Shown piece after piece: positions 1 to 63,799 of a stretch of 64,000 nucleotides of DNA. This DNA comes from Terriglobales bacterium. Its GTDB lineage: Bacteria; Acidobacteriota; Terriglobia; Bryobacterales; Bryobacteraceae. The notes under the pieces are model-generated. The model had not been told where the DNA came from. It did not search any database and was given only the letters and a program-made list of their open reading frames with translations. The DNA lies in assembly GCA_027485675.1 (NCBI GenBank), contig JAIXQP010000021.1:1-64000 (forward strand), in the 5' to 3' direction. Positions within the stretch are counted from its first letter, which is position 1. Every line of letters starts with the position of its first letter. The position numbers were made by a program, and so were the translations under genes.

Positions 1-2269
1 ACCGCCGGCCCAGCTCCCGCCGCAGCGCGGGATAGTGCCGCTCCCAAAAGCCGGCCAGGTCCTGGGTAACCTGCACGGGCCGCTGATTCGGCGCCAGCAG
101 ATGCACCACCACCGGCGTCTGCCCGGCCCGCGGCGTCTCCTTCATGCCAAAGAAATCCTGCAAACGCGAAGCCACCCACGGCGGCTGGCCGTCCACGTAA
201 TGCACGGCCACGGACCGCCCCTTGGCCAGCTTCACGCGCTCCGGCGCCTTATTCTCGAACGCCGCCCGGTCCGGCATCCCGTCGAGCAGGATCCGCTCGA
301 GTCCCCCCTCCCCCAGCAGCCCCTTCAACTCCGCGAAGCTCCGCAGCCCGTAACAAGCCCCCGCGATCGCCTGCCGCAAGTCCGGCTCCGGCAACCCCGC
401 AAACCGCCAGCGCGCCAGCAATCCGGAGACATCCGCGAACCGTTCAATCCCCGCCTCCAGCGCCTTGGCGGCCAACAACTCCGCCGCCTGCTCCGCGTCC
501 GGCCCCCCGCTGCGCGTCTCCTCGATCACCATCCCGTCAAACAGCAGCGCGCTCACCCGCTCCACGCGCTCGGCGGTCCGGTTCCATTCCACTCCGTCCC
601 GGCTGTCCATCCGCTCCGGAAACAGGTCCAGCAGCCACTCCGGCTCCACCTTGCTCGCCAGCCGGATCAACGGCGTCCCCCGGTTCTCCATCTCAATCGC
701 CACCACCAGCTCCGCCTGCCGCACCCCGGAACTCTCCGCCAGCGCCGCCTGCCCCCCGGCCGCCAGCAGAATCTCCCCGTTCGGCCGCCGCTTCCCCAGC
801 CGGTCGCTAAACGCCGCCGTCAGCGCCAGCAGCAGCGCATGGTCGTCCTTGCGCGGCGGCCGCGCCGCCCGCCGTAACTGCTCATAGGTGCGGATCGTCT
901 GCGGTCCCCACGGCCGCTCCAGCAGCAGGAACAGGTCGGAATCCACGAGATGCGGCGGCTTGCCCTCCAGGCGGTCGCCGTTCGACAGCACCGCCGCCGC
1001 CCGGCAACCGTCCTCCCCGCCGTCCACAATCAGGCGCCCGAGCCGCGGGTGCACCGGCAACTGGGCAATCTTCTGCCCCAACGGGGTCAACGCCCCGTTC
1101 TCGACGACGCCCAAGCGCCCCAGCAACGTCTCCGCCGCCGCGATGGACGGCCCCGGCGGCGGCGTCAACCATGGCAGCGCCAACGGATCCTTCACCCCGC
1201 AACCGTGCAGGTTCACGAGCAGTTGCGACAGCTCCCGCCGCGTGATCTCCGGGGCGTCCTGCGCCGGCCGGCGGACAAACTCTTCCTGCGGATACAGCCG
1301 GATCACCCGCCCCGGCGCCGTCCGCGCGCTGCGGCCCGCCCGCTGCGCCGCCGAAGCCTGGCTGACCCGCGCCACCTCCACCGACGGCATCCCCGTCCAC
1401 GGCGAATCCACGGCCACGCGCGCCAGGCCGCTATCCACCACGGCCGTCACGCCCGGAATGGTAATCGAACTCTCGGCCACATTCGTCGCCAGAATCACTT
1501 TGGCTTCGTTTCGTAAAGCCAGTGCCTCGTCCTGCTCCTCCGGCGACATATCGCCGTGCAAGAGAAAAGTACGAAACGAAGCCAATAGCCGCTGCGCCCG
1601 CCGCATCTCGGCGATCCCCGGCAGAAAGACGAGCACATCGCCCGTCAACCCCTTTTTCGCCAGCCGCTCCACCCCCGCGGCCACCATCTGCTCGAGCGGC
1701 GCCCCCGAGTGCGGCGTGTACTCCACCTCCATCGGAAACAGCTTGCCTTCGCTCGTCAGCACCGGGCAGCCGCCCAGGTGCTCCGCGATCGGCGCGGCGT
1801 CGAGCGTCGCCGACATCACCACCAGCCGCAGGTCCGGCCGCTTCCGCCGCTGCAGGTCCAACAGCAGCGCCAGCGCCAGATCGCCGTCCAGATGCCGCTC
1901 GTGGAACTCATCGAGCACCACCACCTGCACGCCCCGCAGCGTCGCATCGCTCAGCAGCCGCCGCGTCAGCACGCCCTCGGTCAGAAACCGCAGCCGGGTC
2001 TTCGGCCCGCTCACATCTTCAAAGCGAACCTGATAGCCGACGGTCTCTCCCAACTTCTCGCCCCGTTCGGTCGCCACCCGCCGGGCCGCCAACCGCGCCG
2101 CCAGCCGCCGCGGCTCGAGCACCAGCACTTCGCCCATCCCCGCCGCCAGCAGCGCCGCCGGAACCCGCGTCGTCTTCCCCGCCCCAGGCGGGGCTTCAAT
2201 CACCAGATTGGGCGTCTTTTCAAGCGAAGCGACAATCTCCGGCAACAGGCTGTCAATTGGAAGTCTCAA
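1..2269 (-). CDS. hrpB: ATP-dependent RNA helicase HrpB (3' end outside window)
   Basis: DEAH-box helicase of the HrpB family, a cytoplasmic ATP-dependent RNA helicase. Translating the minus strand from a TTG at 2269 gives 756 uninterrupted codons. Visible are Walker A GAGKTT (residues 29-34), the DExH box DEFHER (120-125), an SAT motif shortly after, and at the window edge the HrpB-specific C-terminus (PPWVASRLQDFFGM, then APNQRPVQVTQDL and FWERHYP). Judging from family length only about 20 residues lie beyond base 1. TTG is chosen because the protein aligns from its first residues, AGGA lies 7 nt upstream, and a TAGGAT hexamer ends 6 nt upstream. Divergent from the aminotransferase with a 17-bp gap. 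Family assignment is very secure; the cellular role of HrpB is poorly defined in most bacteria. Confidence 0.93.
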   Translation of the reverse strand, partial: MRLPIDSLLPEIVASLEKTPNLVIEAPPGAGKTTRVPAALLAAGMGEVLVLEPRRLAARLAARRVATERGEKLGETVGYQVRFEDVSGPKTRLRFLTEGVLTRRLLSDATLRGVQVVVLDEFHERHLDGDLALALLLDLQRRKRPDLRLVVMSATLDAAPIAEHLGGCPVLTSEGKLFPMEVEYTPHSGAPLEQMVAAGVERLAKKGLTGDVLVFLPGIAEMRRAQRLLASFRTFLLHGDMSPEEQDEALALRNEAKVILATNVAESSITIPGVTAVVDSGLARVAVDSPWTGMPSVEVARVSQASAAQRAGRSARTAPGRVIRLYPQEEFVRRPAQDAPEITRRELSQLLVNLHGCGVKDPLALPWLTPPPGPSIAAAETLLGRLGVVENGALTPLGQKIAQLPVHPRLGRLIVDGGEDGCRAAAVLSNGDRLEGKPPHLVDSDLFLLLERPWGPQTIRTYEQLRRAARPPRKDDHALLLALTAAFSDRLGKRRPNGEILLAAGGQAALAESSGVRQAELVVAIEMENRGTPLIRLASKVEPEWLLDLFPERMDSRDGVEWNRTAERVERVSALLFDGMVIEETRSGGPDAEQAAELLAAKALEAGIERFADVSGLLARWRFAGLPEPDLRQAIAGACYGLRSFAELKGLLGEGGLERILLDGMPDRAAFENKAPERVKLAKGRSVAVHYVDGQPPWVASRLQDFFGMKETPRAGQTPVVVHLLAPNQRPVQVTQDLAGFWERHYPALRRELGRR

Positions 2270-2286
2270 AACGATATCCTATCGAG
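2270..2286. promoter_or_regulatory. Symmetric bidirectional leaderless promoter (hrpB / aminotransferase)
   Basis: The 17-bp gap holds the heptamer TATCCTA (2275-2281). Plus strand: TATCCT (2275-2280), 6 nt, ATG at 2287. Minus strand: TAGGAT (2281-2276), 6 nt, TTG at 2269. Both genes would start transcription at or next to the start codon. No convincing -35 box is seen. Prediction from sequence only. Confidence 0.6.
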
Positions 2287-3399
2287 ATGTCTTATACACT
2301 TGCTCCGTTATCTCCGCCTAAGCGATTACTGTTTGGACCGGGCCCGTCCATGGTGGCACCTCGCGTGTATGAGGCAATGGCAAAACCTGTCGTTGGCCAC
2401 TTGGACCCGTTCTTCTTCCAGGTAAACGAAGAGATCCGCGCCGGCCTCCAACAGGTTTTCGGCACCCAGAACCCCTTTACCCTCGCCCTCTCCGGCACCG
2501 GCAGCGCCGGTATGGAAGCCGCGGTCACCAACTTCGTCGAACCCGGCTCGAAGTTCCTCGTCTTCGCCAACGGCTACTTCTGCGACCGGCTCACCGAAAT
2601 GGGCATCCGCCAGGAAGCCAACGTCGTCCGCATCGAAAAGCCGTGGGGCCAGAAAGTTTCCGATGAGGAAGCCGCCGAAGCCATCCACCGCGAGAAACCG
2701 CAAGTGGTCGCCTTTGTCCACGGTGAGACCTCCACGGGCGTCTCCAACCCCGGCCACGCTATCGCCAAGGCCGCGCGCGAAGTGGACGCGCTCACCATCG
2801 CCGACTGCGTCACCTCGCTCGGCACCATGCCTATCAATCTGGACGCGGTCGGCCTCGACATCGCCTATAGCTGCACCCAGAAGGGCATGAGCTGTCCTCC
2901 GGGCCTTGCGCCCATCACGTGCTCGCCCCGCGCCATGGACCGCCTGCGCGCCCGCAAGTCTCCGCAGCGCACCTGGTATCTCGATCTCAAGCTGCTCAGC
3001 GAGTACTACGATGGCGCCCACCGCTATCACCACACGGCGCCCATCTCGATGTTCTACGCCCTGCGCGAAGGCATCGCGCTGATCCTCGACGAAGGGGTGG
3101 AAGCCCGTTTTGAGCGCCACCGGCAGAACGCCGCCAAGCTCACCGCCGGCCTCGAAGCGATGGGCCTCGAAATGCTCGTTCCGGCGGAAAACCGCATGTG
3201 GGCGCTGCACACCCCGAAGGTTCCCGCGGGCGTCAGCGACCTCGAAGTGCGCAAGAAGCTCATGGAGCGGCACGGCATCGAGATCCTCGGCGGCTTCGGC
3301 CCGCTGGCCGGCCAGGTCTTCCGCATCGGCCTGATGGGCGAAGGCTCGCAGTCCGCCCATGTGGATATGCTGCTCGGCGCCCTCAAGGAAGCGCTCTAA
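2287..3399 (+). CDS. Class V aminotransferase, alanine/serine-glyoxylate aminotransferase family
   Basis: PLP-dependent fold-type I aminotransferase of 370 residues, resembling alanine-glyoxylate and serine-glyoxylate (or serine-pyruvate) aminotransferases. The N-terminal LLFGPGPSMV segment is the family hallmark, and the PLP lysine is K199 in CTQKGMSCPPG. The middle HGETSTGV and D-C-V-T-S-L-G segments match phosphate and ring-binding positions of this family. The start at 2287 leaves a normal short N-terminus; longer in-frame extensions upstream would be antisense to hrpB and are not used. A TATCCT hexamer ends 6 nt before the ATG and there is no clear Shine-Dalgarno. Its stop overlaps the stop of the convergent ABC permease by 4 nt. 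Exact amino donor cannot be read from sequence. Confidence 0.9.
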   Translation: MSYTLAPLSPPKRLLFGPGPSMVAPRVYEAMAKPVVGHLDPFFFQVNEEIRAGLQQVFGTQNPFTLALSGTGSAGMEAAVTNFVEPGSKFLVFANGYFCDRLTEMGIRQEANVVRIEKPWGQKVSDEEAAEAIHREKPQVVAFVHGETSTGVSNPGHAIAKAAREVDALTIADCVTSLGTMPINLDAVGLDIAYSCTQKGMSCPPGLAPITCSPRAMDRLRARKSPQRTWYLDLKLLSEYYDGAHRYHHTAPISMFYALREGIALILDEGVEARFERHRQNAAKLTAGLEAMGLEMLVPAENRMWALHTPKVPAGVSDLEVRKKLMERHGIEILGGFGPLAGQVFRIGLMGEGSQSAHVDMLLGALKEAL

Positions 3400-4202
3400 A
3401 GCACGTCCGCAAAGCCGCGTTTCAAGTGGCGGAAGAACAGACCGCCCACGAAGAACGCTCCCACACTCCAACAGGCCATCACGGCCAATTCATCCGGGTT
3501 CGGCAGCTCTGTCGAGAGCAGCCGGGCCCGGTATGCTTTTACGAACAACGAAAGCGGATTCCCCCGCAGCAGAAACCGGACCCCCTCCGGCACCTGATCC
3601 TCGCTGATGAAGATCGGCGTGATCCAAAACCAGAGCGTCAGCAGGACGATCACGCCCTGCGCCGTATCCCGCAGATAGACCTGCAAACTCGCAAACACCC
3701 ATCCCACCCCGATCGCCAGCATCCCCAGCAGCCCCGTGTAAATCGGAAGGAAGAGCAGCGTCCAATAGAAGTGGCCATCCCAGAACGCCACCGCCGTCAC
3801 GGCCAGCAGCACGGCGAGCAGATGGTTCATCATCGAGGAGAAAAATACCGAAATCGGCAGCATTTCGCTGGGAAACAGCGTCTTCGTAATCAGGTTCGAG
3901 TGCTCGAGAATGGAGTTCGCGCTCCGCTGCACCGTCTCCTGGAACAGCATCCAGGGCAGATAGCCGCAGAGCAGAAACAGCGTGTAATTCTCCGTCGCCT
4001 CGCCGGGAGGCATCGGCGTCTTCATGCAGTAGGAAAACACGAACGTCCAACTCGCCAACTGCACAATCGGATGCACCAAACCCCACATCCAGCCGGCGGC
4101 CGAACCGATATACCGCTGCCGGAAATCACGTTGAATGAGTTGATACAGCAGATTACGGCGCGCAAACAGGTTGCGCAGAAACAAAGTACCGGGAAGCCCC
4201 AT
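3396..4202 (-). CDS. ABC-2 type transporter permease (polysaccharide-export-like), no ATPase partner nearby
   Basis: Integral inner-membrane protein of 268 residues with about six hydrophobic segments. The N-terminus (LLYQLIQRDFRQRYIGSAAG) and the later GWVFASLQVYLRDT segment are typical of ABC-2 permeases that export polysaccharides or polyol phosphates (KpsM/TagG/RfbA type). Such permeases normally sit beside a KpsT/TagH-type ATPase; none is in this window. The gene lies 10 nt behind the cupin gene on the same strand, so the two probably form one transcript. It converges on the aminotransferase with a 4-nt stop overlap. The exported substrate is unknown. Confidence 0.85.
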   Translation of the reverse strand: MGLPGTLFLRNLFARRNLLYQLIQRDFRQRYIGSAAGWMWGLVHPIVQLASWTFVFSYCMKTPMPPGEATENYTLFLLCGYLPWMLFQETVQRSANSILEHSNLITKTLFPSEMLPISVFFSSMMNHLLAVLLAVTAVAFWDGHFYWTLLFLPIYTGLLGMLAIGVGWVFASLQVYLRDTAQGVIVLLTLWFWITPIFISEDQVPEGVRFLLRGNPLSLFVKAYRARLLSTELPNPDELAVMACWSVGAFFVGGLFFRHLKRGFADVL

Positions 4203-4212
4203 GGAGTCTCTC

Positions 4213-4524
4213 TCAGTCTACCGGACCCCGGCCGCCCAGCGTCAGCAGCAGCGTCACATAAGTGGTCGCGCGCACGCCATGCACCTCGCCGGCCGGCAGC
4301 ACGAAGAAGGAGCCCGGCGACACCGGCTCCCACTCCCCACCCCGCAGGAGAGATCCTTCCCCAGCCAGGAAGTGCAGCGAGATCGGCGCGGGCGCCTGGT
4401 GCGCGGACAGTTCATGCCCCGGGGCGAACTGCAGCACCACCACCTTCAGACCCGGCTCGCTCGCCACCGTCCGGCTGACCATCGTCCGTCCGTTCCATTC
4501 CGGCTCCGTTAGCAGATCCATCAT
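4213..4524 (-). CDS. Small cupin-domain protein
   Basis: A 103-residue single-domain cupin (beta-barrel). Cupin motif 1 is seen around PGHELSAHQAP...ISLHFLAGEG, and motif 2 around PGSFFVLPAGEVHGV; metal-binding-type histidines are present in both, though motif 1 is partly degenerate. Function is not predictable: such proteins can be sugar isomerases, dioxygenase-like enzymes or ligand sensors. There are two adjacent ATGs (4524 and 4521) after a GGGGGG run. A TAGTCT hexamer ends 9 nt before the first. The gene is divergent from the PCYCYC lipoprotein and probably co-transcribed with the ABC permease 10 nt downstream. Confidence 0.82.
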   Translation of the reverse strand: MMDLLTEPEWNGRTMVSRTVASEPGLKVVVLQFAPGHELSAHQAPAPISLHFLAGEGSLLRGGEWEPVSPGSFFVLPAGEVHGVRATTYVTLLLTLGGRGPVD

Positions 4525-4544
4525 CCCCCCATTAGACTAGAAGT
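4525..4544. promoter_or_regulatory. Bidirectional -10 element between cupin and lipoprotein genes
   Basis: Heptamer TAGACTA (4533-4539). Plus strand TAGACT ends 6 nt before the lipoprotein ATG (4545); minus strand TAGTCT ends 9 nt before the cupin ATG (4524). Predicted near-leaderless transcripts both ways. Confidence 0.5.
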
Positions 4545-5015
4545 ATGCGCGCCCTACTACTCCTACTCCCCCTGCTGGCCCTGGTCGGCTGTACCACCGA
4601 ATCCCCCACCACCCCCACGCCCGTTCCCACCGCCAGCAACAAAAAAATTCCCGAGGCGCCCCCGATTCCCTACTTCCACGAAACCGCCGCCGCCGCCAAG
4701 CCCCTGCCGCTCACGCTCGACCCGAAGACCTTCACCGACCCCATCATCCAGAAGGCCTACCAGATCGCCAAAGAGATCCCCGAGATCCTCGCCCAGCAGC
4801 CCTGCTACTGCTACTGCGACCGCTCGGCCGGGCACAAGGGCCTGCTCGATTGCTTCCGCGACAACCACAGTTCGCATTGCGGCACCTGCATGAAGGAAGC
4901 GATCCTCGCCAAGAAACTCCACGACGAAAAGTACACGCCGGCTGAGATCCGCACCGCCATCATGCGCGGCGACTGGAAGACGGTAGATCTTGAGAACGCC
5001 CAATCCAGCCACTAA
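4545..5015 (+). CDS. Lipoprotein with PCYCYC cysteine motif (PF13798-like)
   Basis: A 156-residue predicted lipoprotein: hydrophobic signal followed by lipobox LVGC with the lipidated cysteine at 16, then a Thr/Pro-rich spacer to about residue 34. The C-terminal domain carries five further ordered cysteines plus one: C87, C89, C91 in PCYCYCD, C103 in GLLDCF, and C112/C115 in HCGTCMKE. This resembles the PCYCGC-motif family of unknown function. The spacing suggests metal or heme binding or disulfides, but that is inference. Transcription probably starts at the ATG (TAGACT, 6 nt). It is followed after 21 nt by the metalloprotease, which has its own -10-like box. Confidence 0.82.
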   Translation: MRALLLLLPLLALVGCTTESPTTPTPVPTASNKKIPEAPPIPYFHETAAAAKPLPLTLDPKTFTDPIIQKAYQIAKEIPEILAQQPCYCYCDRSAGHKGLLDCFRDNHSSHCGTCMKEAILAKKLHDEKYTPAEIRTAIMRGDWKTVDLENAQSSH

Positions 5016-5023
5016 CTATGCTG

Positions 5024-5029
5024 TAAACT
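5024..5029 (+). promoter_or_regulatory. -10-like TAAACT for the metalloprotease gene
   Basis: TAAACT ends 7 nt before ATG 5037; predicted leaderless start. No -35 match at 16-18 bp spacing. Confidence 0.4.
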
Positions 5030-5036
5030 CTCGGGC

Positions 5037-6974: not shown

Positions 6975-6981
6975 CAAACCG

Positions 6982-7010
6982 TTGCATTTGTTACGGGCGC
7001 AGGTTAACAT
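6982..7010 (+). promoter_or_regulatory. Sigma-70 type promoter of the TIGR03437 gene
   Basis: TTGCAT (6982-6987), 17-bp spacer, TAACAT (7005-7010). The -10 ends 9 nt before ATG 7020, so the predicted leader is only 2-4 nt. This is the best full -35/-10 pair next to a start codon in the window. Confidence 0.65.
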
Positions 7011-7019
7011 CCCTACACC

Positions 7020-11292: not shown

Positions 11293-11341
11293 GGGGGAGT
11301 TCTCTACCTCCCTTAGCATAGTGCCACAAAGCGGCTCAAAG

Positions 11342-11418
11342 TGGGGTGCCCTACGGGGTTCGAACCCGCGACATTCGGAACCACAATCCGACGCTCTACC
11401 AGCTGAGCTAAGGGCACC
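11342..11418 (-). tRNA. tRNA-His (GTG)
   Basis: Complete cloverleaf on the minus strand: acceptor GTGCCCT/AGGGCAC, D-arm TAGCTCAGCTGGTAGAGC, anticodon stem TCGGA/TCCGA around loop TTGTGGT (anticodon GUG), T-arm GCGGGTTCGAACCCCGT. The extra G at -1 (11418) opposite C73 (11345) is the tRNA-His identity element, and CCA is encoded (11344-11342). Confidence 0.97.
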
Positions 11419-11494
11419 GCAGCAAACATGAGTTTACCACAATCGCCGTGGCCCGGGGTAACGTCACTCCGGCAAAATCCGTCCTTTCAGGCCT

Positions 11495-12431: not shown

Positions 12432-12437
12432 TAATAT
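12432..12437 (+). promoter_or_regulatory. -10-like TAATAT for the RraA-like gene
   Basis: TAATAT ends 8 nt before ATG 12446; no clear -35 or Shine-Dalgarno. Confidence 0.45.
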
Positions 12438-15506: not shown

Positions 15507-15556
15507 CCTCATATGCTAGCGTGGCTGGCGGAGTTGGTAAACTGGTAGATTCACGA
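15507..15556. promoter_or_regulatory. Divergent serS/valS promoter region
   Basis: Minus strand TAGCAT (15518-15513), 6 nt, GTG 15506 (serS). Plus strand TAGATT (15546-15551), 5 nt, ATG 15557 (valS). Between them lies a stretch resembling the 5' part of a tRNA-Leu (15526-15553). No -35 boxes recognised. Confidence 0.5.
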
Positions 15557-24379: not shown

Positions 24380-24385
24380 AGCATA
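24380..24385 (-). promoter_or_regulatory. -10-like TATGCT for the small lipoprotein gene
   Basis: TATGCT on the minus strand ends 6 nt before ATG 24373; predicted leaderless. Confidence 0.5.
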
Positions 24386-25297: not shown

Positions 25298-25303
25298 TAG
25301 ACT
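25298..25303 (+). promoter_or_regulatory. -10-like TAGACT for the ABC exporter gene
   Basis: TAGACT ends 7 nt before GTG 25311; predicted leaderless. This box supports the GTG over upstream in-frame starts, which run antisense into truB. Confidence 0.5.
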
Positions 25304-29648: not shown

Positions 29649-29665
29649 GGGACTATCATAAGGGC
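29649..29665. promoter_or_regulatory. Symmetric bidirectional leaderless promoter (Memo / pterin dehydratase)
   Basis: Heptamer TATCATA (29654-29660) in a 17-bp gap. Plus strand TATCAT ends 6 nt before ATG 29666; minus strand TATGAT ends 6 nt before ATG 29648. The geometry is identical to the hrpB/aminotransferase gap. Confidence 0.6.
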
Positions 29666-36901: not shown

Positions 36902-36903
36902 CT

Positions 36904-37866
36904 ATGTTGCGCCTGCTTTTCCTTGCTCTGCTTGTGTTGACGCCAGCAGCGGCCCAACGCTTCGGTCGGCTGACGCGGGAGTTCCTCGAACTTACTGAGA
37001 ACCAGGATGTGCGGCTTCGCGAGATCGTCGAGCCCTTTTATCGGTGGGGAGAGACGCAACGCGAGCGCATCCGCCAGGTGGAAGCAGAGATCGAGGAAGA
37101 GGCGAGGAAGACGCCGCCCGATCCGATGGCCCTAGGGGTGCGCTTCGCCGAACTGGAATCCGTTCGCCGCCACAGTGTGGAACGGCTCGCCGAGGTAATT
37201 CGTCTCCGCCGGTCCGTTCTCACTCCGGAACAACTCCGCCGCGTCCAACTTCTCGAACAAGCGGCGCGCCTGTCCGACACCGTCCAGGACGCCAACTGCG
37301 AGTTCGTGATGCTCCCCGACGACCTGAACGGCGCCTGCGGCGTCGCCTCCGTGAATCTCCGAACGCCCCTCCCTTCTCCCGGTTCCGTCATCCCTACGGT
37401 CGTCGACCCATCGGTTCCCTTTGACCCCACGGCGCCGCTCCGCCGCTATCTGGAACTCACGCCCCAGCAGTCCGCGGTCTACCTTCGGAATCTGGAACTC
37501 CTGCGCACCCGCGAGGCGGCAGCCGGCAGCCGGCTGGCCTGCTCCGACGAGGAGGCGAACCGGGCCTTGGCGGCGAGTCCGCTCTCCCCGGCCGATATCG
37601 GCTTTCCCAAGGCGAACGCCATTAACGCCTACCGGCTGATCCGCTCGTTGTACGAGGAAGCGATCAACGAGAACGTGGCCCTGCTGACCCCGGCCCAGCG
37701 GCAGCGCCTCGAACTCCTCGAACAAGTGCAGATGCTCACCGTACCCGCGGATCTGGCTCGGCGATTCGCTCTGCTTCCACCGGTCCGGATACCAGCCGCA
37801 GGGTTCGTTTTCTTCTCCGGGATCCCCTTTGGCGCTTCGCTCTATTTTTGCCGGATGCCACTTTAG
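36904..37866 (+). CDS. Periplasmic LTxxQ-type (Spy/CpxP-like) protein, copy 1
   Basis: A 320-residue exported helical protein (signal peptide to about AAAQ 18). It contains two copies of a ~95-residue module: ELTENQDVRLREI...PDPMALGVRFAELES...LRRSVLTPEQLRRVQLLEQA and LELTPQQSAVYLRNL...LSPADIGFP...ENVALLTPAQRQRLELLEQV. The LTxxQ motifs recall the Spy/CpxP periplasmic stress family, but the module here is longer. Four cysteines lie in the second half and linker. It starts just after the terminator and is followed by a paralogue; function is presumably envelope-related. Confidence 0.75.
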   Translation: MLRLLFLALLVLTPAAAQRFGRLTREFLELTENQDVRLREIVEPFYRWGETQRERIRQVEAEIEEEARKTPPDPMALGVRFAELESVRRHSVERLAEVIRLRRSVLTPEQLRRVQLLEQAARLSDTVQDANCEFVMLPDDLNGACGVASVNLRTPLPSPGSVIPTVVDPSVPFDPTAPLRRYLELTPQQSAVYLRNLELLRTREAAAGSRLACSDEEANRALAASPLSPADIGFPKANAINAYRLIRSLYEEAINENVALLTPAQRQRLELLEQVQMLTVPADLARRFALLPPVRIPAAGFVFFSGIPFGASLYFCRMPL

Positions 37867-37869
37867 TAT
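37864..37869 (+). promoter_or_regulatory. -10-like TAGTAT for LTxxQ copy 2
   Basis: TAGTAT overlaps the stop of copy 1 and ends 7 nt before ATG 37877, which starts a clean signal peptide. It supports 37877 over the ATG at 37868. Confidence 0.45.
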
Positions 37870-40971: not shown

Positions 40972-40977
40972 ATTATA
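40972..40977 (-). promoter_or_regulatory. Consensus -10 TATAAT of miaB
   Basis: TATAAT ends 6 nt before GTG 40965; the only perfect -10 consensus at this spacing in the window. A plus-strand TATTAT overlaps it (40970-40975) and could fire toward 41026. Confidence 0.6.
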
Positions 40978-41025: not shown

Positions 41026-41952
41026 ATGCGTTTTTGGGCCTTCGCGTTTTGTGCCGTCGTCACCGTCTGGGGCCAGCCACAGAGCAGCACGACCCGGACT
41101 TACACCTTCGACGCCAACGGCACCCGCCAGCTCGCCTCGGAGGGCACGACGGCGAACGGATCGAGCGCACAAGCGGTGCAGAATCTGAACGGCGGACTGT
41201 CGCCCATCGAAAAGGTGGAGGAGCGCGTCCTGCGGGAAGATGCCGTGGGCCGCGTGATCGAGCGGATCATCCGCCCGTACGACGCCAATGGCCAGGCCGG
41301 TTCTCCGCAAAAAGTACAAATTGAGGAGCGCAAACGCCCGGACGGCTCCAAGTCCATCGAAACCCAGGTCTATTACGGCAACATCAGCGGCGGTTTTTCC
41401 CTCGCCGAGAAGACCACGTCCGTCGCCCGGACCGCCGGCAACGTGGAAACGATCGAGACCCAGGTCGCCCGGCCGACCGTGAACGGCTCCGTCGAATTGG
41501 TGGAGCGCAAACAGGCGCGCATCGAAACCGGCGACAAGACCAAGCAGGAGCTGCTGACCGTGGAGCGGCGCGACGCCAACGGCAACTTCCTTCCCGCCCT
41601 GCGCGAAGTGAAGCAGACCCAGCAACAGAACGGCAAGACCATCGAGACCGTGACCGAGTACATCGCCGGGTTTTCGGGCCAGCTGCAACTCAACGGGCAA
41701 TCCGTGGCCGAAACGCAGAAGCGGCCGGACAGCACCGAAATCCGGCAGGTGACCATCTTCGGGATGAGTTCGCCGGGCCGTCCGAACTCGGACAAGCCGC
41801 AACTCCGGGAACAGCAGATTATCGAAAGGCGGACCGCCAACGGCCAGACGATCGAGAGCCTGAGCATCCGCCGGCCCGCCGTCGACAACCCGGCCAACCT
41901 GGGCCCGGCGCAGAGGATCTCGGAGAAGGTTTGCACCGGGGCTTGCAAGTAG
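41026..41952 (+). CDS. Secreted repeat-rich protein of unknown function
   Basis: A 308-residue exported protein (signal to about VWGQ 17). The mature part is hydrophilic, Gln/Thr/Glu-rich and loosely repetitive (for example [38 protein letters not shown]; repeated V-E-x-x-R and E-T-Q-V strings), suggesting an elongated beta-repeat fold. Cysteines occur only at the C-terminus (VCTGACK) and in the signal. No family recognised. Divergent from miaB and 10 nt upstream of hemB, which however has its own -10-like box. Confidence 0.72.
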
Positions 41953-41955
41953 AAT
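41950..41955 (+). promoter_or_regulatory. -10-like TAGAAT of hemB
   Basis: TAGAAT overlaps the preceding stop codon and ends 7 nt before ATG 41963; predicted leaderless. No Shine-Dalgarno. Confidence 0.5.
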
Positions 41956-44340: not shown

Positions 44341-44346
44341 ATTGTA
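44341..44346 (-). promoter_or_regulatory. -10-like TACAAT of the beta-lactamase-like gene
   Basis: TACAAT ends 8 nt before ATG 44332 on the minus strand. Confidence 0.45.
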
Positions 44347-46620: not shown

Positions 46621-46626
46621 TATCCT
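46621..46626 (+). promoter_or_regulatory. -10-like TATCCT of the M24 peptidase gene
   Basis: TATCCT ends 7 nt before ATG 46634; GAGGAG occupies the spacer and could act as a Shine-Dalgarno only if transcription began earlier. Confidence 0.4.
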
Positions 46627-51921: not shown

Positions 51922-52040
51922 GAGACAAACAACGGGAAAACCGCGGCGGGATCTGTCTCGCAATGGACAGACACGCGGCCTATGCTGTTTATCGGAAACT
52001 TAGCCCTGTATCATCAGGGAACGTGGGCCTAGGATTTTGC

Positions 52041-52976: not shown

Positions 52977-53080
52977 AGAATCCGGCCCGTCGATTTCTAT
53001 CGTACAAACTCCCGCCCCCAAACGCAGGAGGACGGCCGCGCCCGCAAGCGCCGCCGTCCTTCTGCCCGGATTCGACTCTC

Positions 53081-55380
<2,300 letters not shown>

Positions 55381-55402
55381 ATTTCCTATGCCGGGCCGCG
55401 GC

Positions 55403-56644: not shown

Positions 56645-56650
56645 GCTGCC

Positions 56651-56657
56651 TAGAATA
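56651..56657. promoter_or_regulatory. Symmetric -10 heptamer TAGAATA above the propeller gene
   Basis: Minus strand TATTCT (56657-56652) ends 7 nt before ATG 56644. The plus-strand TAGAAT (56651-56656) could start a transcript with a ~53-nt leader for the gene at 56716. Confidence 0.45.
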
Positions 56658-56715
56658 CTGCAACTGATCGAAACCGGCGGTCCCCCGCGCCTGTACCAGC
56701 GAGGTACCGGTTTTC

Positions 56716-57801: not shown

Positions 57802-57803
57802 CC

Positions 57804-59489
57804 TCAGTAACGCCACGAACGCAGGTCTGCCCCGGCCGGATGGCTCGTCTCCATGCGCTTCAGGATCTTCTCGAGATACAGCATGTGGTAGCGGAGCCGG
57901 GTCAAATGGTTCGGGTTATTCGGATCGCCGTTCCAACAGTGCTCGGCGCGGTCGCCATACTTCACCTCGCCGCCATAGTTGGTGGTCTTGAGAAAATCCT
58001 CCATCAGGTAAACCGCGTTGTTGAGATAGAAGTTGTCCATGTCGCCGCAGTAGATATGCAGCTTGCCCTGCAACTGGGGGCCGAGCTTGGCCCAGTCCCG
58101 CTGCAGAATGTGACGCAGATCGAAATTCTCCCGCCAATAGGCGGCCACCTGCGGGTCGATCACCCCGGTCTGTTTGTCCCAGATCCGTTGCGGATACCCA
58201 TCAGGGCCGACGGGCGAATAGACGGCCTCCCAGATGTCGAACTGCTGTCCGCTCCGGGTCTTTGACCCGAGCGCGAGCTCCATCTGATTCATCGACTCGA
58301 TGGTCGCCGACACATGGCCCAGATAGTCGCGCTTCCCCGGCCGCGGAATCCGCTGGTGCGGCCCTTCGGTGTAGTAGGCGTTCTTGTCCGCATAGAGATT
58401 CACGGTCGAATAAGCCCGGAAGTCGATCGGATCCGGGCAGGCGCCAAAGGCCCCGTTGAACTCGGTGGGATAGAAGATCTGCGCCGCCAGCGCCTCCCAG
58501 CCGCCCGTGGAACCGCCGTAGGTGAACCGGGCCCAGCCCTGCCCAAGGCCCCGGAAGCGGCGCTCAATCTCGGGCAACAGTTCAAACATAATGGCGTCGC
58601 CGTACGGCCCCAGATTGGCCGAGTTCACGGCGTAGGAGTCGTCGTAATAGGGGTTCGCATGCTGCACCTCCACCACGAGAAAGCGGGGGAAGTTCGGGCT
58701 GGTCCATTTCTTGTAGAACTCGTGCGCCTCCTGCTGCACGATGCGGTTGTAGCCGGAAACCTTGAAGCGCTCCGAGTAGTCCGGCTTCAGATTCGGGTCC
58801 GGCGGCTCAGGTCGGAACCCCGAGAAATCGGCCGGAAAATGGCCGTGGTACAGCATCAGCGGGAACTTCGCTTGCGGGTGTTCGTCAAAGCCGTGCGGCA
58901 GCAGGACGTGGGCGCCGAGATACACCGGCCGACCCCAGAACTTCGTCAGCTTTTCGCTTTGGATGCGCACATGGCGGATGTACTTCGTGTCGGCCGGCGG
59001 AGGGATCGGCGGAATCACCTCGCTCAGCGAGAGCGCGAGCTTCGAACCCGCGTGGACCATCAACTTCACCGGCTTCGAGTAGAGATTGCCCGGCGCGCGA
59101 TTCCATTGGCGGCCTTCGCCGCGGTCGGTCGGCAGCTTCACCGTATGCCCGTCCGCCCGCTGGAACGTCTCGTACAAATCGAGCAGCGCTTGGACGTGAT
59201 ACTCCCCCGGCCGCAGATCCGCCAAACGCCGGACCGGATAACCGTAAGCCTCCGCCCCCACGGAGTGGAAAGCGCCCGGGCGCAGGCCTTCGACATCAAC
59301 CCCGAAGACGACCTGCGTCCCCGGCCCATCGCTAATCTGGAAGCGCGGCTCGGCGGCGGGATCGGTGGAGAACAACAGCAGCAGCCGACCATCCACCGGT
59401 TTGGCGGCCCGTTCGGCGGGTAGTTGCACGGTAACTTCGAGAGCACAAAGAGGCAGAGCGGCAAGCAAGAGAGCAGCGGCGCGAATCAT
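57804..59489 (-). CDS. Exported esterase-like alpha/beta hydrolase
   Basis: A 561-residue exported protein (signal 1-16, LPLCALE). An N-terminal beta domain (about 20-150) is followed by an esterase-D-like alpha/beta hydrolase: YGGSTGGWEA holds the nucleophilic serine, GDMDNFYLNNA the acid, and DRAEHCWNGDP the histidine. VYLGAHVLLPHGFDEHP and FPLMLYHGHFP are typical of this group of acidobacterial/Planctomycete putative esterases. Substrate may be an acylated polysaccharide; this is a guess. TACACT ends 6 nt before ATG 59489. Confidence 0.82.
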   Translation of the reverse strand: MIRAAALLLAALPLCALEVTVQLPAERAAKPVDGRLLLLFSTDPAAEPRFQISDGPGTQVVFGVDVEGLRPGAFHSVGAEAYGYPVRRLADLRPGEYHVQALLDLYETFQRADGHTVKLPTDRGEGRQWNRAPGNLYSKPVKLMVHAGSKLALSLSEVIPPIPPPADTKYIRHVRIQSEKLTKFWGRPVYLGAHVLLPHGFDEHPQAKFPLMLYHGHFPADFSGFRPEPPDPNLKPDYSERFKVSGYNRIVQQEAHEFYKKWTSPNFPRFLVVEVQHANPYYDDSYAVNSANLGPYGDAIMFELLPEIERRFRGLGQGWARFTYGGSTGGWEALAAQIFYPTEFNGAFGACPDPIDFRAYSTVNLYADKNAYYTEGPHQRIPRPGKRDYLGHVSATIESMNQMELALGSKTRSGQQFDIWEAVYSPVGPDGYPQRIWDKQTGVIDPQVAAYWRENFDLRHILQRDWAKLGPQLQGKLHIYCGDMDNFYLNNAVYLMEDFLKTTNYGGEVKYGDRAEHCWNGDPNNPNHLTRLRYHMLYLEKILKRMETSHPAGADLRSWRY

Positions 59490-59495
59490 TTCGTG

Positions 59496-59501
59496 AGTGT
59501 A
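59496..59501 (-). promoter_or_regulatory. -10-like TACACT of the esterase gene
   Basis: TACACT ends 6 nt before ATG 59489; no Shine-Dalgarno; predicted leaderless. Confidence 0.5.
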
Positions 59502-59518
59502 GCGGACAATAGAGGGGA

Positions 59519-62167
59519 ATGCGGATTTTGGTTTTGCTCGCCGGGCTCACGGCGGCATTGGAAGCAGCCGAGTTGCGAGGCATCGTGAAGAGGGAGGGCT
59601 CCCCGGCGGCCGGCGCGGTCGTGACCGTCACCCAGGGCGCCGCGCGGCGCACCGCCCAGACGAATGAGCAGGGGGAGTACGGGTTTCGCGGGGTCGCCGA
59701 GGGCGCCTGGATGGTCCAGGTGGAATTGCCAGGCTTCAAAACGGAGCGCCGGGAACAGATCGCGGGCTCGGCGCCCGAAGAGTGGAATATGCAGCCGGGT
59801 CTCTCCTTTGAGCGGCCCGCCGCCGCCACGCCCGCCCCTCCGCGCCGGGGCCCCGCTCCGCCGCCGCCCGTCAAACCCAAGCCGGAACCCGCGGCGCCCC
59901 TGGTCACCGAAGCCTTGCGGCAGAGCGACGAGAAGGAGGAAGCCAAACCCGGCACCACCCCGCTCGCCGACTGGCAGGCGCCGGAGATCCGGAAGGCGAA
60001 GTCCTCGGCCTACAACGGCTCGCTGGCCGGCCTTTGGAACCAACCCGCCTGGGACGCACGCGCCTACTCCCTCACCGGCCAGCGGATGGCCAAGCCGGAC
60101 TACCATCGGGGCCAAGGCCTGGCCGCACTCGGCGGCCGGGATTTTTCGCTGAACTACCAATGGATGCGAAACCGCAGCCCGCAAACGGTCACCGGCCTGG
60201 TTCCCACCGCCGCGCAGCGTGCCGCCGTGCGGAATCCGCAGGCCGCCGAGTTAGTCAAGCTCTACCCCGATGCCAACTTCGCCGGAAGCTCGCAATACAA
60301 CTTCCAGAAGATGGTCACCAGCGGCTTTCATCAGGATGAGGTACAGAGTAAGTGGCAGCGCACCGTCAGCCGCCACACCCTGCTCAGCAGTTTCGCCTGG
60401 CAGAGTACCCGGACCGACACCGAGGACCTGTTTGGATTCGTCGACCAGACCCGTACCGGCGGCGGCAACCTGAGCGCCGGCTACCGCCGCGCCTACGGCG
60501 CCCGCGCCTTTCTCCGCATCGGCGGCCAACTGAGTTGGCTCGAAAACGAGGTCACGCCCTACTTCGCCGGCCGGCGCAACGTCTCCGCCGCGGCCGGCAT
60601 CACCGGCAACAATCAGGATCCCATCAACTGGGGGCCGCCGACGCTCGAGTTCAGCGGCGGCATCGCGGCGCTCAAATCGCCCCAGGCCGTTTGGCGGCGG
60701 AACCAGGTGGCCGGAGTAACAGGCGACGGCTCCATCGTGCGCGGCAAACATACCTGGAGCGGCGGCATGAGTTACCGCCGCCAACAGTTCAACATCGTGG
60801 GGCAGGAAGAGGCCCGTGGCGCCTTCGCCTTCACCGGCGACGATTGGAGTAAGTTCAGCGCCGGCCTGCCGGATACGGCCATGATCGCCTTTGGCAACGC
60901 CGATAAGTACCTGCGCGGCGCGACGGTGGAAGTCTTCGCCAACGACGATTGGCGCGTCCGGCCGTCCCTGACGCTCAACCTCGCCCTGCGCTGGGAGTAT
61001 TGGGCGCCCCTCACGGAGAAGTACGGCCGCCTCGTCAATCCCGGCGGCCCGCTGCGGCCCGATCGCAATAACTTCTCGCCCCGGCTCGGCCTTGCCTGGC
61101 GCCCCTGGACGGCCCCGGTGGTCGTGCGGGCCGGGTACGGCGTCTTCCACGACGCCGCCGTCTACGCCCCGGTCATGATGCGCATGGCCCAGCAGGCGCC
61201 GCTCTCCCGCAGCCTCCGCATCGGCGGCCCGCTCACGCTGGCCAACGGATTCCCGGCATCCGCCGAAGCCGCCTTCTTCGGCGTCGATCCCAACTTCCGC
61301 GTCGGCTACGCCCATAGCTGGCAGGGCTCCGTCCAAGCCGTCCTGCCCGCCGAATGGGAGCTGCTGCTGCTCTATCAGGGCACCCAGGGCACCCGCGGCC
61401 AGCAGCAGTTCCTCTCCGGCACCGAACCCGGCCGCGCCGTTCCCGGCGTGGGCGCCACCTTGCTGACCACCAACGGAACCTCCAACCGCCAGGCCGGCAG
61501 CATCCGCCTCAGCCGCCGTCTGGGCGGACGCGTCTCGGCCACCGCCAACTACACCTGGGCCAAAGCGCTCGACAACACCGCCCTCGGACCCAAGGGCCAG
61601 GGCGCCACGCACGTCGCGCAGAATTGGCTCGATCTGGACGCCGAACGCGGCCGGTCGAACTTCGACCAGCGCCACGCCTTCACCGGCACCGCCGAATTCA
61701 ACTCCGGCGCGAAGACGCCCTGGCGCTGGACCCGCGACTGGAGCTGGACCGTGCAGTGGGCCGCCGGTTCCGGGCTGCCGTTGACGCCGCACTGGCTGCT
61801 GCCCGTGCCCGGCACCGGCGTCACCACCAGTTGGCGGCCGGATTACACCGGCGCGAACCTCTATCAAGCCCCCGAGGGCCTGAACCTGAACCCTGCCGCC
61901 TACGCCCCTCCCGCCCCCGGCCAATGGGGCAACGCCGGCCGCAACTCCATCAACGGGCCCCGGCAGATCGCCATCAACACCTCGCTCACCCGGGTCTTCC
62001 GCACCAAGGGCCGCGCCGTTTGGGAGTTCCGGGCCGAGGCCGCCAACGTCCTCAACAACGCCACCTTCCCCCACTGGAATACCGTCCTCGGCAACGCGCA
62101 ATTTGGGGTGCCGGTGGCCAGCAACCCCATGCGCATGGTCCAGGTGCTCGGACGAATTCGCTTCTAA
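59519..62167 (+). CDS. Outer-membrane beta-barrel (Oar-like) with carboxypeptidase-regulatory domain, no plug seen
   Basis: An 882-residue exported protein (signal to about LEAAE 17). Residues about 18-90 form a carboxypeptidase-regulatory-like/CNA-B fold (LRGIVKREGSPAAGAVVTVTQ), then a Pro/Ala/Lys linker (about 100-135), then a large beta-barrel ending in the aromatic C-terminus LGRIRF. It resembles TonB-dependent Oar proteins abundant in acidobacteria, but is shorter, and I find no TonB box or plug motif between the linker and the barrel. It may be a plug-less variant. FANDDWRVRPSLTLNLALRWEYW and the NFSPRLGLAW segments are typical barrel strands. Convergent with the SDR gene (4-nt overlap). 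Confidence 0.85.
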   Translation: MRILVLLAGLTAALEAAELRGIVKREGSPAAGAVVTVTQGAARRTAQTNEQGEYGFRGVAEGAWMVQVELPGFKTERREQIAGSAPEEWNMQPGLSFERPAAATPAPPRRGPAPPPPVKPKPEPAAPLVTEALRQSDEKEEAKPGTTPLADWQAPEIRKAKSSAYNGSLAGLWNQPAWDARAYSLTGQRMAKPDYHRGQGLAALGGRDFSLNYQWMRNRSPQTVTGLVPTAAQRAAVRNPQAAELVKLYPDANFAGSSQYNFQKMVTSGFHQDEVQSKWQRTVSRHTLLSSFAWQSTRTDTEDLFGFVDQTRTGGGNLSAGYRRAYGARAFLRIGGQLSWLENEVTPYFAGRRNVSAAAGITGNNQDPINWGPPTLEFSGGIAALKSPQAVWRRNQVAGVTGDGSIVRGKHTWSGGMSYRRQQFNIVGQEEARGAFAFTGDDWSKFSAGLPDTAMIAFGNADKYLRGATVEVFANDDWRVRPSLTLNLALRWEYWAPLTEKYGRLVNPGGPLRPDRNNFSPRLGLAWRPWTAPVVVRAGYGVFHDAAVYAPVMMRMAQQAPLSRSLRIGGPLTLANGFPASAEAAFFGVDPNFRVGYAHSWQGSVQAVLPAEWELLLLYQGTQGTRGQQQFLSGTEPGRAVPGVGATLLTTNGTSNRQAGSIRLSRRLGGRVSATANYTWAKALDNTALGPKGQGATHVAQNWLDLDAERGRSNFDQRHAFTGTAEFNSGAKTPWRWTRDWSWTVQWAAGSGLPLTPHWLLPVPGTGVTTSWRPDYTGANLYQAPEGLNLNPAAYAPPAPGQWGNAGRNSINGPRQIAINTSLTRVFRTKGRAVWEFRAEAANVLNNATFPHWNTVLGNAQFGVPVASNPMRMVQVLGRIRF

Positions 62168-62892
62168 AGCACGGTCGGCAGAATCTCAAGCTCCGGCACG
62201 GCCGCCCGCGGATGCAGGACGGCGACCCCGTAGATGATCTCCGCCACGTCCTCCGGCTGCAGCGCCTTCGACAGCGTCTCCGCCGAGGGCTTCACCGGCC
62301 GCTTCTCCATCAACTCGGAATCGACGAGGCCCGGGCACACGACGCAGGTGCGGATGCCGTTCTCGCGCTCTTCCTGCCGGATCGCCGCTGCCAAGCCCAG
62401 CATGCCGCGCTTCGACGCCTGATAAGCCGCGCCCGAAACGTCGCCGTACTTGCCCGAGATGGACGAAACGTAGATCAGATGCCCCTTCTTCGCCGTCCGC
62501 ATCGCCGGCAGCAGCGCCGCCGTCAGCGAGTAGGGACCGTTCAGGTTCACCTCAATCAGCTCGTTCCAGATGGTCCGGTTCAGCCGCGTCATCGCGCGGT
62601 CCGGCGTGTTGGTTCCGGTGGCAAACACGAGGATATCCACGCCCCCGAGTTTGGCCACGGCGTCCGCCGCCAGCGCTTCCATCGATTCGTGCGAGGAGGC
62701 ATCGGCGGTGCCGTAGGCGATCTCGTGGCCTTCGGCGGCCAATTCGGTGGCCAGTTCAGCGAGGCGCTCGGCACGGCGGGCGGAAGCGTACACTTTGGCT
62801 CCGGCGCGGGCAAACAGGCGGGCAGTGGCGCGTCCAATTCCGCTGGAGGCGCCGACGATGAGGGTTCTTTCCCCTTGAATAGATACAGGCAC
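62164..62892 (-). CDS. Short-chain dehydrogenase/reductase
   Basis: A 242-residue classical SDR. Cofactor motif GASSGIGR (14-21) after LIVGA, catalytic YQASK (Y-x-x-x-K), catalytic serines in YVSSISG, and the structural N in VNLNGPYSL. The RR after the cofactor motif (SARRAERL) suggests NADP preference. Substrate unknown. The start is GTG 62892, 6 nt after TATAGA on the minus strand. Divergent from the isomerase-like gene at 62951. Confidence 0.9.
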   Translation of the reverse strand: MPVSIQGERTLIVGASSGIGRATARLFARAGAKVYASARRAERLAELATELAAEGHEIAYGTADASSHESMEALAADAVAKLGGVDILVFATGTNTPDRAMTRLNRTIWNELIEVNLNGPYSLTAALLPAMRTAKKGHLIYVSSISGKYGDVSGAAYQASKRGMLGLAAAIRQEERENGIRTCVVCPGLVDSELMEKRPVKPSAETLSKALQPEDVAEIIYGVAVLHPRAAVPELEILPTVL

Positions 62893-62950
62893 GAACTATC
62901 TATATCACCATCCGGGCAAGTCCCGAACACCTTCGATATGATGTTTTGGA
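62893..62950. promoter_or_regulatory. Divergent promoter region (SDR / isomerase-like gene)
   Basis: Minus strand TATAGA (62904-62899), 6 nt, GTG 62892. Plus strand TATGAT (62937-62942), 8 nt, ATG 62951. Both fit the leaderless pattern, the first with a final A instead of T. Confidence 0.45.
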
Positions 62951-63799
62951 ATGCAGACCTTGTCCCGTCGTACCTTTCTGGCCGCCTCGGCAGCGGCCGT
63001 GGCGCTCGAAGCCAAGCAGTTGAAGACGTTTGGGGCCCAGCTCTATTCGCTGCGCACGATCATCGACAAAGATCCGCTCACCGTCCTCAAAGGCCTGGAA
63101 GACGCCGGCTACACCGAAGCCGAAGTCATCCGCGCCAACATGGACAAGATCTGGTCCGCCCTCAAGCAGACCAAGCTGAAACCCGTCAGCCTCCACATCG
63201 ATACCCAGATGTTCACCAAGGACATCGACAAGCTCAACCCCGCCCTCGACGACGCCAAACAGCGCGGCTTCAGCTACGTCGTCTGCCCCTACATCGCCCC
63301 GCAGGACCGCGGCGGCGTCGACGTCATCAAGAAGCTCGCCGACACCTTGAACAAGGCCGGCCAGCGCTGCAAATCCGCCGGCATCCAGCTCTGCTATCAC
63401 AACCACGCCTTCGAGTTCGAACCGGTGAAGGAGGGCGGCAACCTCCTCGACGTCCTGATGAAGAACACCGACCCCAAACTCGTCGCCCTCGAACTCGACA
63501 TCATGTGGGCCAAGGTCGGCGGCGTCGAGCCGGTGAAGGTCTTCGAGCAGTACAAGGGCCGCATCCCGCTCGTCCACATGAAGAACGTCAAGGCCGGCAT
63601 CGGCCCGCAGTACAACGAAAAGGTGCCGCGGGATGCGTTCGAGGAAGTGGGCAAGGGCGTCATCGCAATTGGCCCCGTGCTGAAAGCCGCGCAGAAAGCC
63701 GGCGCCAAGCATTTCTTCGTCGAGCAGGACCAGACCCCCGGCAACCCGCTCGACAGCCTGCGCGGCAGCGCGGGATATCTGAAGTCGCTGAATTTCTAG
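62951..63799 (+). CDS. Tat-exported sugar phosphate isomerase/epimerase-like protein
   Basis: A 282-residue AP-endonuclease-2/xylose-isomerase-like TIM barrel. The N-terminus LSRRTFLAASAAAVALEA is a twin-arginine signal. Barrel motifs: VSLHIDTQMF, YVVCPYI, LCYHNHAFEFEP (metal-binding His/Glu), LELDIMWA and PLVHMKNV, and an E near the end (FFVEQDQTPG). Export of an isomerase-like barrel by Tat is common in acidobacteria and planctomycetes; the carbohydrate substrate is unknown. Followed 9 nt later by a second family member. Confidence 0.88.
   Translation: MQTLSRRTFLAASAAAVALEAKQLKTFGAQLYSLRTIIDKDPLTVLKGLEDAGYTEAEVIRANMDKIWSALKQTKLKPVSLHIDTQMFTKDIDKLNPALDDAKQRGFSYVVCPYIAPQDRGGVDVIKKLADTLNKAGQRCKSAGIQLCYHNHAFEFEPVKEGGNLLDVLMKNTDPKLVALELDIMWAKVGGVEPVKVFEQYKGRIPLVHMKNVKAGIGPQYNEKVPRDAFEEVGKGVIAIGPVLKAAQKAGAKHFFVEQDQTPGNPLDSLRGSAGYLKSLNF

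What the first reader, a model, noticed from the sequence alone, without database searches (positions are those of the whole stretch)
2267..62953. Recurrent TANNNT box 5-9 nt before start codons: widespread leaderless transcription
At 22 transcription-unit-leading starts a TANNNT hexamer (one is TATAGA) ends 5-9 nt before the start codon, most often exactly 6 or 7. Starts: 2269-, 2287+, 4524-, 4545+, 5037+, 7020+, 12446+, 15506-, 15557+, 24373-, 25311+, 29648-, 29666+, 37877+, 40965-, 41963+, 44332-, 46634+, 56644-, 59489-, 62892-, 62951+. A -10 box at this distance puts the transcription start on or beside the start codon. If A and T are each near 18%, a hexamer match within this 5-nt spread is expected by chance at about 3% of starts. 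The class includes ATG, GTG and TTG starts and housekeeping genes. TANNNT-driven leaderless genes are established for Deinococcus and actinobacteria; I do not know of a description for this lineage.
Basis: partly seen in the sequence, partly recalled or inferred. Interest (0 to 1): 0.75.

Follow-up and report, generated by a model that had tools for sequence, protein, structure and literature searches.

The report
Start codons placed directly at promoters
In this soil acidobacterium roughly a quarter of the genes that head a transcript have their start codon about where RNA synthesis should begin, and some back-to-back genes seem to share one tiny symmetrical promoter, a compact layout that mapping of RNA ends could test.

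Summary
In detail: all 22 boxes are present (21 TANNNT, one TATAGA). They are more than chance. In 684 kb of the same genome, with starts called without the motif, 63/273 transcript-heading starts carry TANNNT 5-9 nt upstream, against 5.9% at gap 25-29 and 27/3577 internal ATGs. EM finds TAnaAT first. In three congeners 36/39 comparisons keep the box. Aligned sites show a partly extended -10 and no detectable -35. Leaderless transcription is the best explanation but is inferred; no RNA ends are held. It is not new for the phylum: Zheng et al. 2011 predicted it in 3/3 Acidobacteria. 15557+ is probably wrong, 37877+ doubtful. Motif-blind, 7 of 13 pairs 12-30 bp apart carry boxes both ways (shuffled mean 0.73; 0/2000). 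With ATG starts the centred pattern occurs 59 times in 19 congeners against 6 reversed controls, but with any start codon there is no excess (194 against 184). New variant of a known kind.

The parts
2275..2281 (.). Shared symmetric -10 TATCCTA for 2269- (TAGGAT, gap 6; TTG start; gene has a Walker-A-like motif by eye, no family search) and 2287+ (TATCCT, gap 6; class-V aminotransferase); start codons 18 bp apart
   Evidence: boxes and both starts kept in G001, G009, G015; Pfam for 2287+
4533..4539 (.). Shared symmetric -10 TAGACTA for 4524- (gap 9, cupin protein) and 4545+ (gap 6, PCYCGC protein); starts 21 bp apart
   Evidence: the 4524- gene has no relative in the fetched G009 and G015 stretches
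5024..5029 (+). -10 TAAACT, gap 7, start 5037+
7005..7010 (+). -10 TAACAT, gap 9, start 7020+; position kept within 1 nt although letters change in relatives
12432..12437 (+). -10 TAATAT, gap 8, start 12446+ (RraA-like)
15512..15518 (.). Symmetric -10 TATGCTA: 15506- (seryl-tRNA synthetase, gap 6, leaderless) and, by inference, 15557+ (class I tRNA synthetase with Val-type arm) with a leader of about 30 nt
15546..15551 (+). TAGATT, gap 5 before 15557+: rejected as the promoter; TGGATT in G009 and G015
24380..24385 (-). -10 TATGCT, gap 6, start 24373-
   Evidence: G001
25298..25303 (+). -10 TAGACT, gap 7, start 25311+ (GTG)
29654..29660 (.). Shared symmetric -10 TATCATA for 29648- (Memo-like, gap 6) and 29666+ (pterin-4a-carbinolamine dehydratase, gap 6); starts 18 bp apart
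37864..37869 (+). TAGTAT, gap 7, start 37877+; not kept in G001, doubtful
40972..40977 (-). -10 TATAAT, gap 6, start 40965- (GTG; radical SAM/TRAM protein)
41950..41955 (+). -10 TAGAAT, gap 7, start 41963+ (delta-aminolevulinic acid dehydratase)
44341..44346 (-). -10 TACAAT, gap 8, start 44332-
46621..46626 (+). -10 TATCCT, gap 7, start 46634+
   Evidence: G009
56652..56657 (-). -10 TATTCT, gap 7, start 56644-
   Evidence: no relative in the fetched stretches
59496..59501 (-). -10 TACACT, gap 6, start 59489-
   Evidence: no relative in the fetched stretches
62899..62904 (-). TATAGA, gap 6, start 62892- (GTG); not TANNNT, model posterior for -10 only 0.21
62937..62942 (+). -10 TATGAT, gap 8, start 62951+

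Best explanation
The boxes are -10 elements, most likely of the main sigma factor, of a partly extended type (GNTANNNT) without a recognisable -35. Transcription starts about 7 nt downstream, at or within a few nt of the start codon, so the mRNA has little or no leader and the ribosome starts on a 5'-terminal start codon. Operon-internal genes more often have Shine-Dalgarno sites. Because no leader is needed, head-to-head genes can be packed to 18-28 bp between start codons; there one pseudo-symmetric -10 (TANNNTA), or two overlapping -10s, can load RNA polymerase in either direction. Shown: the box, its position, composition and conservation, the lack of -35 information, two-way boxes in close pairs. 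Inferred: TSS, sigma factor, leaderless translation, actual bidirectional firing.
For: Position-specific enrichment with motif-blind starts; top EM motif TAnaAT at gap 6-10; mixture 31% -10 over 800 genes, mean posterior 46% in divergent heads against 22% at same-strand gap <25; reversed -10 matrix 11% against 27.5% for the true one with matrices fixed; 108 aligned sites: G at -14 56%, no column above 0.06 bit from -45 to -4 relative to the first T; 36/39 boxes kept within 1 nt, T/A/T columns 90.6% identical against 68.3% upstream and 69.7% downstream. Close pairs, motif-blind: 7 of 13 two-sided against 0.73 shuffled, 0/2000; TANNNTA in 6 of 13 spacers against 1.23, overlapping boxes in 8 of 13 against 2.02, each 0/2000; box-bearing starts fall with distance 19/26, 20/54, 17/50, 9/62, 4/44. 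CATN5TANNNTAN5ATG: 59 sites in 19 congeners, 6 reversed, 11 and 12 for the two orientations of an off-centre version. The 18-bp start spacing equals the commonest TSS spacing of E. coli bidirectional promoters.
Against: No transcript data. The gene caller is home-made; refined starts use the motif, so fractions are partly circular (and the blind half of 64 are not). The shuffles keep base composition only. The SD component is weakly fixed: its reversed matrix still takes 33% against 40%. Conservation comparisons are not independent (G009 and G015 are near-identical). Orthologous sites are counted repeatedly; own genome alone 7 against 2, and not all 7 have two convincing genes. With any start codon (CAH/DTG) the symmetric pattern has no excess: 194 against 184 in 19 congeners, 56 against 74 in 12 same-order genomes. 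Strict pattern: family f4 is below its control, 7 against 25 in 31 genomes, and 12 genomes reached through named loci, three acidobacterial MAGs among them with no site, give 13 against 13. 15557+ and 37877+ fail conservation.
Confidence: 0.85

Rival explanations
1. The boxes are real -10 elements but starts are mis-called: the true start lies a little downstream, so the mRNAs have short ordinary leaders.
For: In nine congeners the 83-aa gene starts 12 nt after the box, not 6.
Against: For 18 window starts at least one congener aligns from residue 1 with a start codon kept; motif-blind starts still peak at gap 6-8; SD-like 4-mers are fewer at heads (22%) than at operon genes (38%).
Confidence: 0.08
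2. The signal is an artefact of AT-rich upstream DNA.
For: Upstream A+T 46% against 35% in the window; TNNNAT and ANNNTA 39/273 each near starts.
Against: Position peak, T/A/T column conservation, distal and internal controls, 0/2000 composition-preserving shuffles of close spacers.
Confidence: 0.03
3. In close divergent pairs the symmetric sequence is a regulator's operator rather than one bidirectional -10.
For: The DegT/83-aa spacer is identical in the 9 genomes with 83-aa proteins at least 90% identical and holds the palindrome CTCTAGAG; that is more than a -10 needs.
Against: In 8 of 9 more distant congeners that spacer differs yet keeps TANNNTA (by eye); between gene pairs the other letters differ freely.
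Confidence: 0.15
4. Each close pair has two separate promoters whose -10s overlap because of packing, with no functional coupling.
For: Of 16 refined pairs 12-30 bp apart, 12 have overlapping two-way boxes but only 8 hold TANNNTA; some are offset, such as ATGTTACGCT at C48:13672/13696.
Against: Excess of the centred 18-bp ATG form over off-centre forms.
Confidence: 0.3

Closest known systems
TA-led leaderless genes of bacteria (Zheng et al. 2011, PMC3160421)
   Same: TANNNT about 12 nt before the start; predicted in 3/3 Acidobacteria, mean 13.3% (passages)
   Different: Genome statistics; one search counts no 'divergent' or 'bidirectional' in it (one search counts one 'divergent transcription', probably a reference title)
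Deinococcus-Thermus -10 motif adjacent to ORFs (PMC12340547)
   Same: TANNNT acting as the -10 of leaderless genes, with experiments (passages)
   Different: Other phylum; one search counts no 'divergent' or 'bidirectional'
Bidirectional promoters with symmetric -10 elements (Warman, Grainger; PMC12825309 passages; the 2021 paper is not held)
   Same: Shared pseudo-symmetric -10; divergent TSSs most often 18 bp apart, also 10 and 23
   Different: E. coli; one search counts no 'leaderless' in the 2026 text. Here both start codons appear to sit at the TSSs
M. tuberculosis leaderless transcriptome (Cortes et al. 2013, PMC3898074 passages)
   Same: Closely juxtaposed divergent promoters called common; prpD and its divergent regulator both give leaderless mRNAs
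   Different: No shared symmetric -10 or 18-bp start spacing in the passages seen

Membership tests
TA-led leaderless bacterial genes | TANNNT -10 about 12 nt (first T) before the start | tested here: met
TA-led leaderless bacterial genes | 5' end of mRNA at or within a few nt of the start codon | not testable with these tools
   no RNA data held
TA-led leaderless bacterial genes | Concentrated at transcript-heading genes, SD at distal genes | tested here: met
   -10 posterior 46% divergent heads against 22% same-strand gap <25, SD 30% against 51%; same-strand gap >=50 only 26% -10
Symmetric -10 bidirectional promoter | Shared or overlapping -10 elements on both strands at characteristic spacing | tested here: met
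   not met as an excess when any start codon is allowed
Symmetric -10 bidirectional promoter | Transcription in both directions | not testable with these tools
   no RNA data held
Extended -10 promoter | TG at -15/-14 | tested here: inconclusive
   G at -14 56%, full TG 23/108
Canonical sigma-70 promoter | -35 TTGACA-like element 15-19 bp upstream of -10 | tested here: not met
   no column above 0.06 bit from -45 to -4 (background taken from the first 20 of these columns); no TTGA peak; 108 sites

The most novel reading that the evidence does not exclude
Some acidobacterial lineages maintain minimal bidirectional control regions: a 17-nt gap between two start codons that holds a single symmetric -10, from which RNA polymerase makes one of two leaderless mRNAs per loading event. 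The same short stretch is promoter, both TSSs and both ribosome entry points, so the two genes are expected to be coupled and mutually exclusive at initiation. Particular gene pairs keep it across species or genera (DegT aminotransferase/83-aa protein; GNAT/E1 dehydrogenase; pterin dehydratase/Memo).
Probability: 0.5. Interest if true: 0.6.

Novelty: new variant of a known kind. Interest (0 to 1): 0.45.

Why it matters
Gene starts in a large, little-cultured soil phylum should be annotated with a -10/leaderless model as well as Shine-Dalgarno sites. The shared boxes link two known themes, leaderless genes and symmetric bidirectional promoters, in a very small form, and give a clean test of whether leaderless starts let divergent genes pack and of what that does to their co-expression.

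Tried and rejected
Symmetric pattern with any start codon (CAH...DTG): no excess, 194 against 184 in 19 congeners and 56 against 74 in 12 same-order genomes (own genome 14 against 7), so the excess claimed rests on ATG-ATG pairs. Raw scan of TANNNT-gap-ATG without gene calls gives a weak peak (70, 64, 74 at gaps 6-8 against about 50). Phylum survey of GNTANAATN6ATG: 1880 against 488 in 109 genomes, 106 of 109 above control, but AT-rich genomes dominate the sums. Strict symmetric pattern in the phylum sample: 120 of 297 genomes have a site; I summed only families f4 (7 against 25) and f24; f24 was chosen for because it looked positive, and part of its genomes are in both calls. The sister genus g8 has 1 against 2 in 2 genomes. 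Twelve genomes reached through named loci: 13 against 13. RNA structure in the 15557+ leader: no relevant Rfam match, fold z-score 0.04, leader not seen in L029-L031. Print on leaderless pairs sharing a divergent promoter: 3 of 3 listed; none; 12 of 157 listed; 15 of 23; 12 of 36; nothing closer than the M. tuberculosis prpD case in the listings and passages seen; open-licence papers only. In one search the 23-bp identity is by construction, since I searched for the exact string; the evidence is. Rows dropped: one search classified 510 of 513 called genes; 795 of 800; one search binned 118 of 133 divergent pairs (the rest overlap or lie closer than 12 bp); one search gave 39 comparisons from 18 of the 22 starts. 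The pairs 2269-/2287+ and 29648-/29666+ are not among the 133 as 18-bp pairs: my caller has no gene for 2269-, which runs off the window, and chose 29615 for 29666.
Full report
Setting. The window is G000:C39:1-64000 of a 6.59-Mb genome in 54 contigs, GC about 65%. The best named matches to its Val-type tRNA synthetase are a Bryobacterales MAG and an Acidobacteria MAG (65 and 64% identity), so the host is an acidobacterium of the Bryobacterales or near it; the genome itself is unnamed.

Observation. One search prints all 22 upstream regions. 21 have TANNNT ending 5-9 nt before the start and 62892- has TATAGA. The list is of positives only. The chance rate is nearer 6% than 3%: TANNNT at gap 25-29 is found at 5.9% of heads.

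Control analysis. I wrote a gene caller that uses only codon-pair statistics and start-codon type. In 684 kb, 63 of 273 transcript-heading starts have TANNNT at gap 5-9, with maxima at gap 6 (7.3%) and 8 (7.0%); internal ATGs have 27 of 3577; operon-type starts (gap under 25 nt) 25 of 200. TNNNAT and ANNNTA reach 39 of 273 each at heads, so AT-richness and partial matches explain part of the excess. EM on 30-nt upstream regions of 310 genes returns TAnaAT at gaps 6-10 as its best motif. A mixture model in 1.056 Mb gives 28% none, 31% -10, 41% SD over 800 genes; mean -10 posterior 46% in divergent heads, 41% at same-strand gap 25-49, 26% at same-strand gap of 50 or more, 22% below 25, where SD is 51%. 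With fixed matrices and flat positions the reversed -10 matrix takes 11%, the true one 27.5%; for SD the figures are 33% and 40%, so the SD share is weakly fixed.

Promoter type. 108 sites (head classes, posterior above 0.8) aligned on the hexamer show G at -14 in 56%, TG in 23 of 108, purines after the box, and no column above 0.06 bit from -45 to -4 relative to the first T. With gap 6 the expected TSS, 7 nt past the box, is the first base of the start codon; this step rests on general sigma-70 knowledge.

Conservation. For 18 window starts against stretches of three congeneric genomes, 39 comparisons were possible; 36 keep TANNNT within 1 nt of the same distance. T, A and T columns are 90.6% identical, the three middle ones 78.6%, upstream 68.3%, downstream spacer 69.7%. 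The comparisons are not independent, G009 and G015 being close. Misses: 15557+ in G009 and G015 (TGGATT), 37877+ in G001. For 15557+ the likelier promoter is TATGCTA at 15512-15518, shared with the seryl-tRNA synthetase gene (15506-), giving a leader of about 30 nt. The last four starts (56644-, 59489-, 62892-, 62951+) had no relative in the stretches fetched.

Shared boxes. In the 1.056-Mb sample with motif-blind starts, 13 divergent pairs lie 12-30 bp apart (19-30 in fact). 7 have boxes both ways (gap 4-10), against 0.73 (sd 0.85) in composition-shuffled spacers, 0 of 2000 reaching 7; 6 hold TANNNTA (1.23 shuffled) and 8 have overlapping two-way boxes (2.02), each 0 of 2000. The share of box-bearing starts falls with distance: 19/26, 20/54, 17/50, 9/62, 4/44. 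With refined starts 8 of 11 pairs at 20-26 bp are -10 type on both sides, against 2 of 21 from 200 bp up. Without any gene call: CATN5TANNNTAN5ATG occurs 59 times in 19 congeneric genomes, reversed control 6; the same letters off centre 11 and 12 times in the two orientations. Own genome 7 against 2. 17 of 19 genomes have a site. Allowing any start codon removes the excess (194 against 184), so I claim it for ATG pairs only.

Conserved pairs. Many of the 59 sites are orthologous, so they are not independent events. The clearest is a DegT aminotransferase gene facing an 83-aa protein without Pfam match. In all 9 congeners whose 83-aa protein is at least 90% identical the 23 bp from start codon to start codon are the same (10 of the 23 letters are fixed by the pattern, but searches found the genes by protein). 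In the 9 further genomes with 63-70% identical proteins the spacer differs: by eye 8 of 9 keep TANNNTA, all 9 keep the DegT-side box 6 nt from a GTG or ATG, and the 83-aa start lies 12 nt from the box, so that side would have a leader of about 5 nt. One search found no relative in one incomplete genome. The window pairs 2269/2287 and 29648/29666 are kept in every congener stretch that covers them: three and two.

Breadth. In a phylum sample of 297 genomes 120 have at least one strict site. Family f4 of the same class is below its control (7 against 25 in 31 genomes) yet keeps the one-sided signal (163 against 40 in 11 genomes). Family f24, picked because it looked positive, has 44 against 13 in 41 genomes; there a GNAT acetyltransferase/E1 dehydrogenase pair keeps TANNNTA and both ATGs in the 8 genomes I fetched because they had it, from two genera, with spacer letters changing (Pfam on one of them), and a pair with a tRNA-synt_1c protein does so in 2 more. 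Twelve genomes reached through named loci, three actinobacteria and three acidobacterial MAGs among them, show no excess (13 against 13).

Against print. Zheng et al. 2011 (passages) already predicted leaderless genes with TANNNT in 3 of 3 Acidobacteria, mean 13.3%. Deinococcus has experimental support (PMC12340547, passages). Symmetric -10 bidirectional promoters with 18-bp TSS spacing are known in E. coli (PMC12825309, passages). In M. tuberculosis one divergent pair with both mRNAs leaderless is shown (PMC3898074, passages). I found no description of leaderless gene pairs sharing one symmetric -10 (searches; partial listings, open-licence papers only).

Verdict. Observation confirmed. Leaderless interpretation likely (0.85) and known for the phylum by prediction. 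The shared symmetric box between two start codons is the part worth following; it is a new variant combining two known kinds, with transcription itself untested.

Noticed in passing
window 15518-15556 (+): Leader of the Val-type tRNA synthetase resembles, by eye, the 5' half of tRNA-Leu (own tRNA-Leu). It is conserved in three congeners but not seen in L029-L031; no relevant Rfam match and no unusual fold. Could be a tRNA mimic, a tRNA remnant or chance.
   Followed up: partly
L153:2926-2948 and L154-L161, L178-L195: 23 bp from start codon to start codon identical in 9 congeners between a DegT aminotransferase gene and an 83-aa protein with no Pfam match; holds palindrome CTCTAGAG. In 9 more distant congeners the spacer differs but mostly keeps TANNNTA.
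   Followed up: partly
L149:2634-2656 and L164-L167: Conserved symmetric box before a 488-aa protein; the opposite 86-aa (60-aa in L164) frame looks unlike a real gene by eye, so conservation there may serve one direction only.
   Followed up: no
window 41950-41955: A conserved -10 overlaps the end of the upstream gene; the delta-aminolevulinic acid dehydratase gene starts 10 nt after that gene: a leaderless start inside an apparent operon. 63 of 332 genes with same-strand gap under 25 are -10 type by posterior.
   Followed up: no
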